From the NCBI GenBank assembly GCA_037074765.1, contig JBAMDO010000023.1:293837-357836 (forward strand): DNA of 64,000 bases, read 5' to 3'. Below are positions 44,890 through 53,391 of this stretch, piece by piece (the first letter of the stretch is position 1; the number at the start of each line of letters is the position of its first letter). The DNA is from Mansonella perstans (taxonomy: Eukaryota > Nematoda > Chromadorea > Rhabditida > Onchocercidae). Made by a program: the position numbers and the translations under genes. Under the pieces are notes generated by a model. The model was given only the letters and a program-made list of their open reading frames with translations, searched no databases and was not told where the DNA came from.

Positions 44890-47823
44890 TTTTCGTTAAA
44901 ATTTCATTAAATTGAATTTAATTTTGCAGATGAAAGAATAGAATCATGTATTTTTTTTTTCGGAGTTTTTTTTAATAATTTTAAAAGATAATAGCAAATT
45001 TTACCTAAATTTCTACGATATCCTATCAAAGGACTAATTGAAGAATTTGCTTCACAAATGTCTCTTTAGCAATACAAATGAATATTTCAATGGTAATTAT
45101 AATGCTGAATTCAGACTGGTAATTCATTTCTGCTGTACTGATGACAATTAAACAGACAATTTGTGAATTAAAATAAAGTCTTGGAAAAAATTAATATTAC
45201 AATAATAATTTATTTTAAGCAATAGAACAGTATTGCAGAGGTGAATCAAGTGAATTATACATTCATTACTATTACTTTATGCTTACTAATATTTATGATT
45301 TTCAAATTAGTTAACAGTTAAGATGGTATAGTACATATCTGTTATGTACTGATATATCAAAAATCATTTCCTACTGAGCATAACATATCCAATAAAAATC
45401 AATCGAGATACGGATTGATTACTTCCAGACGATCGATCAATAATACTATTTGGATCATTTATAAATTATGATCATAAGATTTCTACTGGTGTAATTGAAA
45501 CAATTGAAATATTTTATCAAATTACCAAAATATGAAATTTATTGGATAAAAAATGAAAATAAACAAAAAAGGTTTCCGAATACAATTTTAATAACAAAGT
45601 TTGTACAAAATTGAAACGAAATAAATGAAAATCTAATGAAACAATAAAAAAATTGATTTAATAAAAAAATCATTGACAATAGTAGACGACTACAAGAACA
45701 AATTTAAAAAGTCAAAAATTAGATAAATCAATAAAGATCCAAAAGAAGTAAGAATGAACTAACTTAGAAAGCTACTAATTGAAGAAAAATGTAAAATAGA
45801 ATTTAAATTGACCTATGCCCTAAGCTCTAGGCAACATGGAAGAAAACCATCAAGGTTACATAAATTGTTTACATCAGTACCTCTCAAGCACTCAATTTAA
45901 TATAATAAAGGTTCAACTTGAAATCTAAATCCAATTCTGGAAACTACCCTATAAATTAAAAAAATTTTTCTTTCGTTTAATTTCTTCACTTTATAGTTTC
46001 GCAAGAAGAGGAGGTATGATTGAGAAATTGAGTTACAAAAAAAGAAGAAAAAACCCTGAAGTTTTTTAAAATTAATCAATTTTCATATTAAAAATTTAAG
46101 GAAAAAATAAAACTTTTCTTTTTGATTCGCGAGAAGAAATTCGATTGTCCCAATTCCCTACAAATGTCACACAGAACATGAAATATGGATGAAAGTGAAA
46201 AAGTGCAATGATGAGGCTTTTTCTGCTTACTAAAATGAATTTGATGCCAAATATTTCTCCTGCCAGAAACAATAAGTCCATGTTTATAGCTACAGCCTAA
46301 TTGCTTCATATGAAACAGATAGCAATCAGTCAACTTTTCTCGAATACTATCGCTTAAATGAAGAAATTTATTGTAAATTAGCATTAAAGATCGCAAAATT
46401 ACTATCATTTTCAAGTGAGTAATTATAGAAATTCATGAATTATATATCTGGAAATATTGAAATAAAAAAAGAAAACTCATTCAAAGCAGACTTAATTAAT
46501 TGGAAATTGGAAATTGAAAAACTAAAAAGAATAGAAATAGATATCGTTAAACTGAAATGCTTGCATAAAGATAGAATTATTACAAATTTCAGTAATGGAA
46601 GTAATAATCAAAATTAACTGGATAAAGAAGAAATCAAGAACTAATGATATTACTGAAATAAAACTACACAGCTAATTGTCCCGAAACAAACTTGCACAAG
46701 TAACGAAAGAATTAACCCATGCCGTAATGTCCATTACTCTCCCGAAACTATTTTGGATCGTCGCTTTACATTTTTACGTCCCTTTGTAATCACCCAGAGC
46801 ATGGATTAAAGGGATAACTGCATATATTGCGTGGGAATATATGTTTCGCGATTTTTCTTAGACTGACTCCCGAGAGGAAATTAATGAAGTGTCAATCAGT
46901 AATCATGACAAGATATTTTAAAGATGAATGAAGTGGAAAGTAATTTGGAAAAAATTTGTCTTTTTGACCTTTTGCAATTTTCGTCCAGTAACGGCATATG
47001 TGAGGCTTAAATTAAAGTAGGAAATTCGACAGGAAATCGATGAGATTTTGAGAATAAATGGTGCAGTAGCCTTCCTTAATTCTAGAGTTTTTACCTTTAA
47101 AATTGAAAACTTAGATGAAACTTAGAAAAATATATAAACGAGAATGAAAGGATGAGCCTTACGGATAGTTTTCAGAATTCAAAGAAATTAAGAAAATTTT
47201 CGATTTTAAAGAAAAGTTATTGATTTTCTAATAATTTCCTTATCATTGGATCATTCAAAGGTCTTTGACGGGACAAAAAAGTGCTGAATATTTGTAATAT
47301 GGAGAACTTGTAGAGTAAGGAAAACTGAAATGTATGGTGTTTCGATCTGACTTTAAATAATTCTTGTGAAGCAAATCTTGCGAGAATCCCTGAAATAATT
47401 CAGTACCGAAGGAACATCCCTGAATTGCATACATTATCGTTGCAATTAACCCATCTAACAATTTCTACTTGTGATCTTTAGTGAACTCTTAAATTCCTAA
47501 TATAGAGGAAATTCCTAATATAGACTTTTTAGTGAACTCTGAAATTCCTAATGTAGATGTCATTTCTCACGGGTGACTTTGTACAATTTATGTAATTTGG
47601 TGAATTTTTCACTCAGATGCTTTTACTTGCATTTTCATGTGCAAATGATTCTTTTTCAAATGAAAAAAAATGATCTATACTAATCGAGCAAAAATTTTTA
47701 AATTTCTCAAAATATTTGACTTTAACTTTTTCTCTCATACAAATCAATTTTAATGGTCTAATTTAGCAAAGAGAAAATGGACAAAATAACACAAGTATAG
47801 TAATTGTATCATTATCAGAACTA
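44890..47823. other. Mostly intergenic; one possible small two-exon gene
   Basis: No known family. Plus-strand frames at 46435-46617 (60 aa, Lys/Glu/Ile-rich) and 46672-46809 (46 codons after a CTACACAG acceptor; reads TCTSNERINPCRNVHYSPE) look more coding-like than their surroundings and the second is G+C-raised, but a donor joining them in phase was not found. A 108-codon frame on the minus strand (46414-46088) overlaps nothing recognisable. A TTAGTGAACTCT/AAATTCCTAAT repeat lies at 47478-47556. Confidence 0.35.
47478..47556. repeat. Short tandem repeat TTAGTGAACTCT / AAATTCCTAAT
   Basis: Full units at 47478-47505 and 47529-47556, with a half unit (AAATTCCTAATATAG) between them. Confidence 0.8.
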
Positions 47824-48001
47824 TTGAGGTCAATCTTTCTATATTTTGTAATTTTTGCTTGTACATGTCATCCGGACATTGTTGAGGTCAATCTTTCCAT
47901 ATTTCGTAATTTTTACTTGCACTGTTTCATTCAAAAATTGTTGAGGTCAATCGATCAAATTTTTATTGAGGTCAAACGGCTATGAGTGGTCGTTGAGGTA
48001 A
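47824..48001 (+). promoter_or_regulatory. Array of five TTGAGGTCA-like sites upstream of the KH gene
   Basis: TTGAGGTCA occurs at 47824, 47882, 47941 and 47976, with a one-base variant (TTGAGGTAA) at 47993, all in the same orientation. The first two lie in a tandem pair with a period of about 58 bp (followed by ATCTTTC and GTAATTTTT). AGGTCA is the consensus half-site of nuclear hormone receptors, and an A/T-rich 5' extension is typical of monomer-binding receptors. The array ends 62 bp before a TATA-like box, so it is well placed as a regulatory element. Function is inference. Confidence 0.5.
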
Positions 48002-48063
48002 TTAGAGGCGGAGAGAGAAGCGATGATTGGTAGTTGTAAAAAAAAGCCAAGCAAGGTAGTCCT

Positions 48064-48071
48064 TATATAAA
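48064..48071 (+). promoter_or_regulatory. TATA-like box of the KH gene
   Basis: TATATAAA preceded by CCT and followed 25-35 bp later by a pyrimidine-rich stretch (CCCTTCAACTTCTCG) that could hold the start site. The first exon would then run from about 48095 to 48388. Confidence 0.5.
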
Positions 48072-48240
48072 TGCGTCTGTTTCCCTTCAACTTCTCGTTG
48101 TCAAAGAAATTCGTCGCGAGCTAGGCACTATTTCGGACCTGAAAATTCTTATTGATTGGGTGTTTTTATACTTTTTATTAAGATAATAATCTTTTTTTCC
48201 ACCATCTCATCAATTTTTAATCTTAGTGTGAATTTATTTT

Positions 48241-48388
48241 CTTTAAATTCGTCGCCGGGAAACGCAACGGAAGTGCGAAATGGAATCAGCCGTTTTTAAT
48301 GTCATTAGTTTCAGCTTTAAAATCATCGCCCGGAAAAGCAACGGTAACGTGAAATGGAATCAGCCACTTTCACTGTCATTAGTTTCAG
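48241..48388 (+). repeat. Exact-length 74-bp tandem duplication ending at a splice donor
   Basis: Copies at 48241-48314 and 48315-48388 are both 74 bp, without indels, differing at about 12 positions. Both contain ATGGAATCAGCC and end GTCATTAGTTTCAG. Only the second copy is followed by GT (GTGAAT), so the right edge coincides with the exon-intron border. Because 74 is not a multiple of three, the two ATGs are in different frames. Confidence 0.9.
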
Positions 48389-48942
48389 GTGAATTATAAA
48401 TTCAGTTTCATTTCATATATTTTTTAGTTTCAAAAAATATTCGAATCTGTATTATTTTCATTACTTAATTTCTTGTTGGTTTCAACCTTCTCCTATTTCG
48501 TACCTTAATTTAGGGTCCCAGCCGTGATGGTGGATTTTTTGGTGGGAGTTGATGATCAACAAGCGCTTTACATAGCATTTATGACTGAAACGGAATTGGA
48601 ATTGCCACGTCGATACCAAAGTACAACATTTGTAGTCAGTGGATATCAAAATAATGTCCAACGAGCTCTACGGATGATTGAAGAAATTGTCAACGAAAAG
48701 TATGGTGATTTGGATTCTCCACATTATGCCTTTATTCCTGATCCGAATAGGGTAAGATATATTTGAATTTCAAGAACCATTTTACGAATGAATATTTCAT
48801 TTTTTTAGTTTGAACTCATGAAAATTATTTAATTAACTTCTAAATTTTACAGGAGCAAAGTCGCGCTGATTATATCCTCTGCAATGGACCTATTTATGAA
48901 GCGAAATATAGGCCAGGAAGAGAAGGCATGCAACGAGGCTAA
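48354..48942 (+). CDS. Small protein with a degenerate KH-type domain, three exons
   Basis: Exons 48354-48388, 48514-48751, 48853-48942 (TAA), 120 aa; donors GTGAAT and GTAAGA, acceptors TTTAG and TTTACAG, phases agree. Residues 13-70 align by eye with a type I KH RNA-binding fold: VPAVMVDFLVGVDDQQ matches the usual VPxxMVGxLIGxxGxx, then a TELELP strand, FVVSG, and a last helix VQRALRMIEEIV. The RNA-contacting GxxG loop is replaced by GVDD, so ordinary RNA binding is doubtful. The tail is polar and ends PGREGMQRG. The start is the second of two duplicated ATGs; the first (48280) is out of frame and would open a short upstream frame that ends in exon 2. AATAAA follows at 49160. The KH assignment rests on pattern, not on a search. 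Confidence 0.7.
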
Positions 48943-49159
48943 TCAATCAAATACTTGCATATTAAATTACCTTCTGTTTTTTTTATTTTTGTATATGTTG
49001 TATCAAAAATTGTTTACGTACAATATTTTGGAGTTATTTATTGTACAGTATTTTGGAGAATTCTTCGATCACTATATTTTCATTTATACTTATTTACTGT
49101 GTTCAGATATTATGAAATTACTTTGTACATTTGTGTCCAGATATTGTCGCGAAAATTAA

Positions 49160-49165
49160 AATAAA
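49160..49165 (+). terminator. Candidate poly(A) signal of the KH-like gene
   Basis: AATAAA about 218 nt after the stop at 48942, upstream of the foldback element. Confidence 0.5.
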
Positions 49166-49267
49166 ATTTTATACAAATTCATAGGGAATGCTTTTCGTGA
49201 TTCATCAGTTATCTCATTTTTGAATTTTTTCTCATACCTTAATTGTATAATTATATTCCTTAAAATT

Positions 49268-50088
49268 ATTCCCATACTTTTTTGTCATTATCTATGATTT
49301 ACGCTCCTTATAATTACTTCCCATTGCCGAAACTCGTGTCTTCTCTCAACTATTTTTATCTTATCACATTATGACCTGTTATATTAAACCATTAATCAGC
49401 TTATGTAAAATGATTTATGGCCCTTGTATTAACAGATCCACTCCTTCTTCTTCCCCTATATAAACTGTTACTCTAATCACAATGTTCATTATCATTAAGT
49501 ATTAAGCATTAACTGCTCTCATCGGCTCCAGTCTAGTTAGCGTTAATCCAGCACTCTCGTACTATATCAATCCATTTGCTTCGCATTTTAAACTAAAAGG
49601 TTGTGCTACAAAAGTTTTCCCGGCTCGTGGCACCCAAAAATATTTGTCGGGAAAAGTTTTCCCGGCTCGTGGCACCCAAAAATATTTGTCGGGAAAAGTT
49701 TTCCCGGCTCGTGGCACCAAAAATATTTGTCGGGAAATTTTTGTAGTACAACCTTTTATTTTAAAACGCGAAGCAAATGGATTGATATAGTACGAGAGTG
49801 TTGGATTAACGCCAACTAGACTCGGGCCGATGAGAGCAGTTAATGCTTAATGCTTAGCTTAGTGGTAATGAACATTGTGATTAGAGTAACAGTTTATATA
49901 GGGGAGAAGAAGAAGTGGATCTTTTAATACAAGGGCCATAAATCATTTTATATAAGCTGATTAATGGTTTAATATAACAGGTCGTAATGTGATAAGATAA
50001 AAATAGTTGAGAGAAGACACGAGTTTCGGCAATGGGAAGTAATTATAAGGAGCATAAATCATAGATAATGACAAAAAAGTATGGGAAT
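49268..50088. mobile_element. Large foldback element: ~355-bp inverted arms around a repeat core
   Basis: The left arm 49268-49621 and right arm 49732-50088 are reverse complements, about 95% identical by eye, with only small indels (for example around 49495 against 49850). Landmark pairs: GTCATTATCTATGATTTA near 49284 with its complement near 50055; TATATAAACTGTTACTC at about 49456 with its complement near 49895; CTTCGC near 49580 with GCGAAG near 49776. The centre holds three 42-bp repeats. No transposase frame is present, so this is a non-autonomous foldback/MITE-like unit or a palindromic duplication. No clear short target-site duplication was seen. A related phrase (AAATTACTTT, then GTGTCCAGA) flanks both sides as a diverged direct repeat (about 49112-49142 and 50093-50116). 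A transcript crossing it would form a hairpin of about 350 bp. Confidence 0.9.
49610..49734. repeat. Three-copy 42-bp repeat at the centre of the foldback
   Basis: Units at 49610-49651, 49652-49693 and 49694-49734; the third lacks one C. The first two are identical. Each carries TTTTCCCG near its start and CGGGAAAA across its junction with the next unit, so each unit can form its own hairpin. At 42 bp the repeat keeps frame and would read KSFPGSWHPKIFVG per unit on the plus strand, but no start, splice context or conservation supports translation. It is much richer in G+C than its surroundings. Confidence 0.95.
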
Positions 50089-50801
50089 TATAAAATTACT
50101 TTTTATACAGTGTCCAGACATTATAAAATTATTTTGCTTGAATACATAAATAAAAAATTATTTTTGATTCCGTTTCGCATCGAAGTTTGCACAGAGACAT
50201 CAATATTAAAACTATACTAATAAAATTTCTGCATTTCAAACAAACAATCAAGGATGTTTTTATCGGTTGAAAATGGTCATTTGTCAATAAATGTTTCACT
50301 GTGTTTGTTACTGCAATATTGGCGTTTGTCTTTTAAATGTTGGCGACTGATTTAAATTGTAATACAGTATTACAGTATTAGTTCACGGCAAAAAGAAGAA
50401 AAAGATATTTAAAAAAAAACAGGAAATTTAAGCGAGAAATTGTCTTCCATTAAGCTCCAGGATATGTTCTCATGAATATATCAAATGTTAAGAAAGGAAA
50501 AGAAAGGATAATATATTTAGTGATTAAAGTGTCGACTGATAGCAGTAACAAACCATATAATTGGTATTTGCTTGTAAAAACTGACTCGTGGAAATTTTTC
50601 ACGCATATATTGCAATATTGCTAATGATGAAGCTTTGATAATTTCACCTGGAACCATCATGAAAGTTAAGTTAATCCTTTGCTATTTCGTCAGACAATGA
50701 AATTCAAACATTCAAATATTGTAGTTATTTGAATTTGTATTACTTGATTGCTTAATTTTTTGGAGGTTCCAGCTTTTTTCTACTTGATACTTCCATTTAA
50801 G

Positions 50802-51060
50802 ATCCCTGCCGTGATGGTGGATGTATTGCTGGGAGTTGAGGATCAACAGGTATTTTTTATAGCATTTAAAACCGATCACTATACCACTTCCAAAGTGCCG
50901 CATTCGTGGAATACGTCCGTGGTAAGTGGTAAGAACAAAAAAAGTGAAAAGTAGAAAAAACATAATCATGGAATACATATGGAATACATCTTAATCAACC
51001 AAATTCTTCCAGAAATCAATAATTGATGAGAAGGAAATATTAGGTGATCGGTATGCTTGA
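50802..51060 (+). pseudogene. Broken second copy of the KH-like gene
   Basis: After a CATTTAAG acceptor the frame reads IPAVMVDVLLGVEDQQ and continues FFIAFKTD, clearly paralogous to exon 2 of the gene at 48354. It then loses alignment, recovers VVSG, and stops at 50954 after a Lys-rich stretch. A further fragment at about 51014-51060 (IIDEKEILGDRY) recalls the EIVNEKYGD part of the intact copy. No equivalent of the first or last exon was found. The relic is in the same orientation as the intact gene, with the foldback element between them. It carries V-E-D at the GxxG position, so loop loss predates the duplication. Confidence 0.65.
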
Positions 51061-52261
51061 TATGAATACATTAATAAATTATTTGGCAGCAAATGTTTTG
51101 CATTATTTCTTACATGACTAGCAGCTTTTTGCCTATCAAATAGATATATGGTTTTTTTTTTGATTAAATTTATGACTATGCCAGAATAGATGCAGGTGTA
51201 AATTGAATAAAGCCAAGAAAAAATGTTGTAAATGAATCTATTTGCATTTAATTTTCATTTTTTCCTCTGAAGTATAACTGATCCGTTATAATTGACTTTT
51301 AAGTATAATTGATCCGAATTAAAATCATATTGAGTTATATGTGTGGGTGTAAAAGTTTTGTAGCTCATTCAATTTTGATATTGTACGAATTAGGAATGGA
51401 TGTTTGTGTCATCTTTATGCTCAAAGATTAATGCGCAATTACAGAACTTAATACAGGGTAAGTATGTTTAATACATGAGCAATAATGGTAATGAAGAAAA
51501 ATGTTACTGGAAGGTAAATAAAGGAAAGTAAAAGTCTAAATTACAATTGGATAAAAAGATTGAAAAATTGAGAAAAATCAGAGAGCGGGGAAGAGAGAGA
51601 AGACGAACAATCGAGAGAAATAAGAGAATGTCTAGTTTCAGATTTCAGCATTTTATATTATATACGAGTGGGTTTAGCTCACAAAATTCCAAGACAAAAC
51701 ATGATCTTTGAAAAAAAATGATAGATGCCTCATATTTGATATTTTAAGATTAATAGTTTGTTACATCAATTTTCAAAATGATTTCAATTTTTTTGCATAA
51801 GGAATCACTTAACTCAGAAATATTTGAACCTGGAACAATCTATATTCAAAAATTTTCATTATCACAAGCATTTATAGCTACAAAGTTCTTAAAAGTCAGA
51901 GGCCCTAACTATTTACAGAATCTTAACTTCTCACTTAAATCGGCCTGAGAATTTGTAGCATTTTCTGAAATTGTCAATTACAGTTTCTAGGATTATTAAC
52001 TGTACAGATGTTTAAATCAAATCACTTAAATAGTGAATATTTGTCCGAAGCCTCTTACTGATGTTAGAAGAAACATACAAAATCTCGAAAATTTGTTTTG
52101 TGAGTAAGCCTTTTTTCCATAAAATTTAGTTTTATTACAATGCTAGCCTTTATGTAGGACTAACTTAGGACCAAATTGTTCAGCATTGTTATTTTTTATC
52201 AATATGACGGTGAGCCAATATGATCATATTGATATGATCATTTGATGTAATCAACTGTTTA

Positions 52262-52404
52262 TTAGAATGATATCAGAATGATATCATGATTAGAATGATA
52301 TCATGACCAAATTGATTATGCAATGATCATGCAATTTTGATTATGCAGTGATCATGCAGTTTTGACTATGCAATAATCATGTGAATGATCATGCAATTTT
52401 CGGT
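52262..52404. repeat. TGATCA-rich tandem repeats
   Basis: First AGAATGATATCA(TGATT) about three times, then TTTTGA(T/C)TATGCA(A/G)TGATCATGCA about four times. Each unit contains the palindrome TGATCA or GATATC. Confidence 0.8.
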
Positions 52405-53391
52405 ATCATCTTTTTCACATTCTTTAACTCAAATGTTTTTGAAATTTTTGAATTACTTTAGATTTCTTTATGTTGACTATTGTTTGTATTCTTGAATTAA
52501 ACAGGTATATCGGTTATAATATTCCACTATTTTAGTGTCTTAACATTTTCCGATTACAGCGTCCTCTTTTTTTTTTACATGACAAATATATTTAACTTGC
52601 ATGCCATTTTACATGACAAATATGCCTAATCAAACTTTTTCATGCAAATCACTGGAGATGCATTTTACGGACACGTATTTTACGAAATTTCATGGAACTG
52701 CCGATGAGAATGTCGGTGAAGGGTGACCTTAAGTTTGGTTGAAGCAAGATGCTAAAAGAATGGATCGTTATTCACCTTTTTCCACGGTTACATTCATACT
52801 CCTTGGAAGCGAAAGTTTGAGAGAATGTAGCAGACACATAGCAAGGGCCATATTCTAATTCCGCTTCGATGCCATATATTCAGATTTTTTTTTGCTTATT
52901 ATATCATTTGGAATCAATAATCTCTTTCCTCAAGCATCTGCTACAACTAGAAATATGTTGGTTTTTATTCAATAACTTTAATAGCTTTTGGCCTCGTTTA
53001 AACTATGGTAACATGTTAGCAATGTTAGTAGACATCTTCAATTTGCTCAACAATAAATACTAATAATTTTTTTATGCAAAGATGTTGCAATGTTTTTTTC
53101 AGATTGATTTCAGATTTCCTTTAAGTTATCAAACCCATGTATTACACTCTGTCCGCGATATATTCGTCGAGGCCATTCATCAATTGCATCATATCTGATA
53201 ATGACATTTCATTGTTTTAATGATCCGTCTGTCTAAGGTAATTCTTTAGAAATGCACACAAATTTTTGAATCATCAAAAAAATATCGATCCATTTGGGAG
53301 AATGTGATTCATTTTCAACCATTTATTTAACAAATTTCAAGAAACTATAGGCCAAAAACAAGTAACAATGAAACTTTTCAAAGATTTTGTA

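What the first reader, a model, noticed from the sequence alone, without database searches (positions are those of the whole stretch)
49268..50088. Nearly perfect ~355-bp-arm foldback element with a 3x42-bp core
Two arms of 354 and 357 bp are reverse complements with few differences, enclosing three tandem 42-bp units that are themselves hairpin-forming and much richer in G+C than the surroundings. There is no transposase. High arm identity implies recent origin or ongoing gene conversion. Both arms contain TATATAAACTG, so divergent transcription is conceivable, and read-through from the neighbouring KH gene would make long dsRNA, a natural endo-siRNA source in a worm.
Basis: partly seen in the sequence, partly recalled or inferred. 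Interest (0 to 1): 0.75.

Follow-up and report, generated by a model that had tools for sequence, protein, structure and literature searches.

The report
Palindromic LTR insertion of Pao retrotransposon
A near-perfect DNA hairpin in a filarial worm genome turns out to be two copies of the end of a retrovirus-like jumping element facing each other, most likely a faulty DNA copy that folded back on itself during reverse transcription and was then inserted as a unit; relatives elsewhere in the same genome show that such mirror-image copies do get integrated.

Summary
The inverted repeat is real (338 of 353 aligned arm positions identical, 95.8%), but it is not a transposase-type foldback element. 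Both arms are LTRs of a BEL/Pao retrotransposon family, in opposite orientation with U3 outward. The left LTR starts with TGTCGCG at 49145, 123 nt outside the reported start; the right LTR lacks that stretch. The "42-bp units" are the end of U5 plus the 18-nt primer binding site, three times, on the minus strand. LTR and PBS of this family precede a DUF1759 gag gene elsewhere. In the centre the 3' end of the PBS runs straight into antisense U5; a separate locus on contig C24 has the same junction, partly deleted. Three of nine U3-outward inverted pairs elsewhere have exact 5-bp target duplications (CCCCT, GAAAT, GGTCT) and a fourth has 4 of 5, so such molecules can be integrated. Best explanation: plus-strand cDNA snapped back at the PBS, copied itself, and was inserted through two U3 ends; slippage tripled the centre and a deletion took the right tip. 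The snap-back is inferred. The arms' promoter-like boxes are convergent, not divergent; siRNA output is untested. Ordinary family, unusual integrated form.

The parts
49145..49622 (+). Left LTR, complete at its U3 end (TGTCGCG...), ending in ...GTTTTCCCG where it runs into the antisense PBS; the final ACA of a normal LTR is missing
   Evidence: 92% of aligned positions identical to a 500-bp LTR with TG...CA ends at C303 (L015); LTR boundaries set by copies with 5-bp TSD
49457..49467 (+). TATA-box-like TATATAAACTG in left LTR
49610..49734 (-). Core: three tandem units (42, 42, 41 bp), each = end of U5 + linker + PBS
49618..49635 (-). PBS copy GGGTGCCACGAGCCGGGA (1 mismatch), followed directly by antisense U5 of the left arm: the palindrome junction
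49660..49677 (-). PBS copy GGGTGCCACGAGCCGGGA (1 mismatch)
49702..49719 (-). PBS copy TGGTGCCACGAGCCGGGA (exact)
49728..50088 (-). Right LTR, complete at its U5 end (CCCGACA), lacking the first ~123 nt of U3; the right limit is uncertain by about 3 nt (50088-50091)
   Evidence: compare L015 LTR
49890..49900 (-). TATA-box-like TATATAAACTG in right LTR, pointing at the left one
49099..49144 (.). Left target flank: unit GTGTTCAGATATTATGAAATTAC... and the first part of a second unit, GTGTCCAGATAT
50089..50145 (.). Right target flank: rest of the interrupted unit (TATAAAATTAC...) and an intact third unit GTGTCCAGACATTATAAAATTAT...

Best explanation
The locus is one insertion of an aberrant, palindromic cDNA of a BEL/Pao LTR retrotransposon. 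Shown: the arms are LTRs with U3 outward, the core is U5 end plus PBS, the 3' end of the PBS is fused to antisense U5, and some other inverted U3-outward pairs in this genome sit between exact 5-bp target duplications. Inferred: plus-strand (strong-stop) DNA, U3-R-U5-PBS, folded back so that its 3' end CGGGA paired with TCCCG at the end of U5, primed synthesis on itself and yielded U3-R-U5-PBS-U5'-R'-U3'; integrase accepted it because U3 and U5 tips look alike (TGTCGCGAAA and, reverse-complemented, TGTCGGGAAA). The central 42-bp hairpin was then tripled by slippage and a small deletion removed the right U3 tip with part of the target duplication.
For: Family: LTR and PBS of this kind stand ahead of a gag ORF with PF03564, E 1.8e-25, in L014, whose relatives are filarial Gag / Pao proteins (best hit Loa loa 71%). 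PBS: 71 sites genome-wide at up to 1 mismatch, 0 in the reversed-pattern control. Family TSD is 5 bp: 18 of 47 same-strand U3..U5 rows are 5/5, 17 distinct, 16 of them LTR-sized. Of 9 distinct U3-outward inverted pairs, 3 are 5/5 (L028 CCCCT, L057 GAAAT, L059 GGTCT) and L016 is 4/5; flanks of different loci match 5/5 in 30 of 4374 comparisons. Junction: window GAGCCGGGAAAAC... and L028 CGAGCCGGGAAAAATG..., both PBS end into antisense U5; L082 shows the same kind of turn 68 nt past the PBS at a 4-nt match, GGAA. The window's two arms are nearer to each other (95.8%) than the left one is to L015 (92%). The flanks join into one repeat unit like its neighbours (27 of 34 positions to the left unit, 26 to the right one; 152 of 20000 random right sides reach 27).
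Against: The window copy has lost one end, so its own TSD cannot be tested. The 5-bp stem at the PBS end is weak: 23 and 16 of 200 shuffles fold at least as well for the two window-type strings, 133 of 200 for the L036 type. 22 of 39 PBS contexts, the window's own included, have the complement, yet only the window and L028 show the PBS junction among loci read. L057 and L059, with clean TSDs, are not PBS snap-backs: L057 joins 51 nt of leader to an antisense PPT end, its LTRs best match different references (91% L047, 87% L036) and are 88.9% alike. 5 of the 9 inverted pairs have no matching flanks (0-3 of 5). In L028 the left LTR starts TATCGCG, not TGTCGCG.
Confidence: 0.62

Rival explanations
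1. Two truncated cDNA ends were joined by host end-joining (not by snap-back priming) and the U3-U3 product was then integrated.
For: L057 joins 51 nt of leader to the PPT/U3 boundary of an inverted body and has TSD GAAAT, and its two LTRs match different references; no hairpin is needed there. L059 is likewise composite.
Against: Window and L028, with LTRs about 79% alike, share the same junction at the last PBS base next to the complementary U5 end; random end joining would rarely hit the same base twice.
Confidence: 0.2
2. The palindrome arose in the chromosome after insertion: inverted duplication of a resident solo LTR, or two separate LTR insertions in opposite orientation.
For: Window right end is truncated and has no testable TSD; C205 (L014/L065) has a palindrome with 2.1-kb arms, 99.3% alike, that includes 145 bp outside the LTRs, so chromosomal inverted duplication seems to happen here.
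Against: The window flanks read as two parts of one target unit; U3 tips directly at exact 5-bp TSDs on both sides in L028, L057, L059 need an integration event.
Confidence: 0.13
3. A selected hairpin-RNA locus: convergent or read-through transcription makes long dsRNA that feeds siRNAs against the Pao family.
For: Near-perfect RNA hairpin; TATA-like boxes face each other; at the presumed poly(A) signal the left arm reads ACTAAA while the right arm has AATAAA, so read-through from the left is conceivable.
Against: No expression or small-RNA data; arms differ at 15 of 353 aligned sites; few other loci with this layout were found.
Confidence: 0.04
4. A foldback or MITE-type DNA transposon, as first proposed.
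For: Inverted arms without coding capacity.
Against: Arm copies with both ends read are mainly solo LTRs with 5-bp TSD; the core is a PBS; a gag gene lies behind LTR and PBS in L014.
Confidence: 0.01

Closest known systems
BEL/Pao LTR retrotransposons of filarial nematodes (DUF1759 gag; Pao elements of Brugia malayi in PMC7181701, passages read)
   Same: LTRs, PBS, DUF1759 gag in relatives, 5-bp TSD in this genome's copies
   Different: Here two LTRs inverted, no coding region, PBS triplicated
HERV-K124 (PMC3625200, passages and section 5 read): human element with inverted, partly deleted internal and 3' LTRs
   Same: LTRs inverted relative to the 5' LTR in an integrated element; authors speculate on LTR inversion plus template switching
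   Different: No PBS-centred palindrome is described in the section read; its authors leave the mechanism open
Circular retroviral DNA with an inverted segment (Shoemaker et al. 1980; title seen only in a reference list)
   Same: Aberrant retroviral DNA with inverted parts
   Different: Circular products; here linear with two U3 ends at target duplications in sister loci
DIRS-1 (PMC5633606, passages read): retrotransposon with inverted LTRs
   Same: Inverted LTRs
   Different: DIRS-1 has a tyrosine recombinase and circular intermediates; this family has 5-bp TSDs and a BEL/Pao-type gag

Membership tests
BEL/Pao LTR retrotransposon | LTR with TG...CA ends | tested here: met
   Left arm begins TGTCGCG at 49145; right arm's U5 end is CCCGACA; full LTRs in L015, L020, L036, L047
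BEL/Pao LTR retrotransposon | tRNA primer binding site next to U5 | tested here: met
   18-nt PBS in all three units; 71 sites genome-wide, control 0. The primer tRNA itself was not identified
BEL/Pao LTR retrotransposon | relatives with such LTR and PBS carry a BEL/Pao gag | tested here: met
   DUF1759 gag behind LTR and PBS in L014, filarial Gag/Pao homologues. Pol was not tested
BEL/Pao LTR retrotransposon | gag-pol in the copy itself | tested here: not met
   The window element is LTR-core-LTR only; its longest stop-to-stop ORFs are 94 codons through the arms and core
BEL/Pao LTR retrotransposon | short target site duplication | tested here: inconclusive
   Family: 5 bp. Window copy: right tip deleted
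BEL/Pao LTR retrotransposon | LTRs as direct repeats | tested here: not met
   Inverted here; hence an aberrant derivative, not a regular member
Foldback / MITE DNA transposon | multiple copies with the same inverted arms and arm ends | tested here: not met
   Copies with both ends read are mainly solo LTRs; inverted loci found differ in core and arm length
DIRS-type element | no target site duplication (recalled as typical of tyrosine-recombinase elements) | tested here: not met
   Exact 5-bp TSDs in this family
DIRS-type element | tyrosine recombinase | not tested
   No search for it was made
TRIM | short terminal direct repeats | tested here: not met
   Repeats are inverted

The most novel reading that the evidence does not exclude
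U3-U3 palindromic cDNA is a regular by-product of Pao reverse transcription in this worm because the 3' end of the PBS is complementary to the end of U5, so that strong-stop DNA tends to fold back on itself; the inserted palindromes, with convergent LTR promoters, then act as built-in hairpin-RNA sources against the family.
Probability: 0.1. Interest if true: 0.7.

Novelty: new variant of a known kind. Interest (0 to 1): 0.42.

Why it matters
Integrated retroelements with two U3 ends and clean target duplications are natural evidence that integrase does not need one U3 and one U5 end, and they preserve the junctions of failed reverse transcription. They also give a simple route from an LTR retrotransposon to a foldback locus that could make double-stranded RNA, and warn that foldback elements without transposase may be mis-filed LTR derivatives.

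Tried and rejected
Foldback or MITE transposon: rejected, since arm copies with both ends read are mainly LTRs. A 4.9-kb 'autonomous' foldback at C205 (L014): it is a gag-bearing Pao copy in a palindrome with 2.1-kb arms that include flanking DNA. A TSD ATTAT around the arms as first delimited: dropped once the left LTR start was found 123 nt further out. L020 looked like an inverted pair but is one solo LTR (own TSD AATAT) nested in an inverted LTR. The inverted LTRs of C429 (L047) face each other with their U3 sides and look like separate insertions. Primer tRNA: one pattern hit, which was itself a PBS (L046); ARAGORN, run with the bacterial code, found no tRNA there. Rfam: no match at gathering score in 46000-53000. 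Empty site or haplotig without the element: the flanks match only themselves, apart from a 77% exon-like stretch and one 84% local repeat on the same contig. Junction-pattern search: 7 sites, 3 in the window, 1 in C24 (L028), 1 a normal leader at C36, 2 (C125, C360) not read; reversed-pattern control 1. Literature: nine full-text searches (open-licence library only), of which one search was about Pao in filariae and the others about inverted or palindromic LTRs and their possible origin, gave no description of U3-outward palindromic BEL/Pao insertions in the listings seen; two listings were cut (20 of 50 papers, 20 of 789) and one search found none. One search was about SL1 and Pao. Passages were read in five papers and one section of one of them.

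Full report
OBSERVATION. The inverted repeat is real: 338 of 353 aligned arm positions match, with 7 gap columns. The core has two identical 42-bp units and a third that is one C shorter. The window lies at C23:293837-357836 of a 75.7-Mb, 539-contig assembly.

WHAT THE ARMS ARE. A search of the genome with the 821-bp element gives 88 match rows; the query is palindromic, so most places appear on both strands, and counts are lower bounds. One place, C205 (L014), has the arm sequence (84%), then the core sequence in reverse, then a 348-aa ORF with PF03564/DUF1759 at E 1.8e-25. The ORF's relatives are filarial Gag and Pao proteins: Loa loa 71% for the best hit, Onchocerca ochengi 52-73%, and entries from Acanthocheilonema, Brugia, Dirofilaria and Wuchereria among 64 hits. 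The host is therefore very likely a filarial worm; I do not name the species. Copies with direct LTRs (L036, L048) and solo LTRs fix the LTR ends as TGTCGCG... and ...CCCGACA. Aligned to the 500-bp LTR of L015, the window's left LTR runs from 49145 to 49622 and has both features except the last ACA. The right LTR runs from 49728 to about 50088 on the minus strand and lacks the first ~123 nt of U3.

WHAT THE CORE IS. Read on the minus strand, each unit is the end of U5 (TTTTCCCGACA), a short AT linker and (T/G)GGTGCCACGAGCCGGGA. With up to 1 mismatch that 18-mer occurs at 71 places in the genome, with none for the reversed control. 42 distinct contexts were read, three of them the window's own units; more than 20 of the 71 sites stayed unread for want of letters. 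In most contexts it follows a U5-like end and precedes a leader (ACGGACGGAATGTCC... and similar). It is the primer binding site. In the window unit next to the left arm, and in no other context read, it is followed at once by antisense U5. L028 on C24 was found through its LTRs: its PBS is cut to the last ten bases, but those run into antisense U5 in the same way.

INTEGRATION. In one search I tested flanks for the LTR ends found in the fetched loci. Same-strand pairs: 18 of 47 rows are 5 of 5 (17 distinct places, 16 of them LTR-sized, one a 3.5-kb direct-LTR element); L036, a 2.6-kb direct-LTR element, is 4 of 5; most of the rest are LTRs beside a PBS or PPT. Inverted pairs with U3 outward: 12 rows, 9 distinct after removing L065 (same as L014) and L058 (same flanks as L057). 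Three are 5 of 5 (L028 CCCCT, L057 GAAAT, L059 GGTCT), L016 is 4 of 5, and five are 0-3 of 5 (L014 twice, L020, L044, L066). Flanks of different loci match 5 of 5 in 30 of 4374 comparisons, a figure inflated by duplicate loci. In L028 the first LTR base pair reads TA instead of TG. So molecules with two U3 ends were most likely inserted here at least three times. Further inverted loci whose outer ends could not be tested are L018, L061, L082, L083 and the window itself. The window's left flank ends GTGTCCAGATAT and its right flank begins TATAAAATTAC; joined, they restore a repeat unit that lies intact on either side (27 of 34 positions to one, 26 to the other; 152 of 20000 random right sides reach 27). 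This suggests one insertion and a later loss of the right tip.

HOW IT AROSE. Shown: PBS 3' end next to antisense U5; two U3-outward LTRs; TSDs in sister loci. Inferred: snap-back of plus-strand DNA at CGGGA/TCCCG. DNA folding puts the 3' base in a 5-bp stem at -5.6 kcal/mol, but 23 and 16 of 200 shuffles fold as well, and the L036-type string is no better than shuffles (133 of 200). 22 of 39 PBS contexts carry the complement, so the stem is common while the palindrome is rare. L082 shows a similar turn 68 nt beyond the PBS at GGAA (arms 98.4% over 369; normal leader in L076); its outer ends were not resolved. L083 has PBS, a 24-nt leader, then antisense PBS and a diverged U5. L057 instead joins 51 nt of leader to the PPT/U3 boundary of an inverted body, and its two LTRs match different references and are 88.9% alike, which fits end joining of two molecules better. 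I therefore keep end joining as the main rival. The tripling of the unit by slippage is inference.

FUNCTION. The RNA of either strand would be a near-perfect hairpin (+ strand folded). The two TATA-like boxes face each other. The presumed poly(A) signal is AATAAA in the right arm and ACTAAA in the left. Whether any RNA is made is unknown, and nothing here speaks for selection on the hairpin.

NEIGHBOURHOOD. A stop-to-stop ORF at 48509-48766 has a weak KH match (PF24668, E 2e-5, 24.4 bits against a cut-off of 27), and a 77% similar stretch lies 2.3 kb downstream, so the element sits between two diverged copies of an exon-like block.

PRIOR WORK. HERV-K124 has inverted partial LTRs (PMC3625200, passages and section 5 read); DIRS-1 has inverted LTRs with a different mechanism (PMC5633606, passages); Pao elements and SL1 in Brugia (PMC7181701, passages). 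In vitro use of two U3 ends by retroviral integrases is recalled, not checked. The searches named under Tried and rejected cover only an open-licence library.

VERDICT. A well-explained derivative of a known family with an uncommon integrated form. Interest 0.42.

Noticed in passing
L086:323, L081:242, L080:114, L062:2083(-), L059:6339(-) and others: Many Pao LTRs carry the nematode spliced leader SL1 directly behind AATAAA: 36 distinct AATAAA+SL1-like stretches (16 or more of 22 positions) in the fetched loci, 10 of them 22/22 (no chance control was run). Trans-spliced RNA could thus keep matching ends (R) for strand transfer; that is inference. PMC7181701 reports SL1 within 1 kb of PAO in B. 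malayi (passages). The window LTRs have only 12-13 of 22.
   Followed up: partly
L014/L065, G000:C205:40832-46233: Palindrome with 2.1-kb arms, 99.3% identical, each with LTR, PBS and gag plus 145 bp of outside DNA; looks like a chromosomal inverted duplication.
   Followed up: partly
L057 and L058, contigs C530 and C19: The same 3.9-kb inverted-LTR insertion with the same near flanks on two contigs: duplicated segment or uncollapsed haplotypes.
   Followed up: partly
L047, G000:C429:9223-10286: Two LTRs in tandem, separated by the 4-nt LTR-PBS spacer, before a PBS.
   Followed up: no
L044, G000:C173:1147-2719: LTR preceded by a PPT-like end, then PBS and a gag-like fragment, joined to an inverted LTR (arms 99.8% identical) with complete U5 end and no TSD; possibly an autointegration product.
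   Followed up: no
window 48438-48581 and 50726-50868: 77% similar stretches on both sides of the element, with a weak vigilin-type KH match in the first: diverged tandem exon copies.
   Followed up: partly
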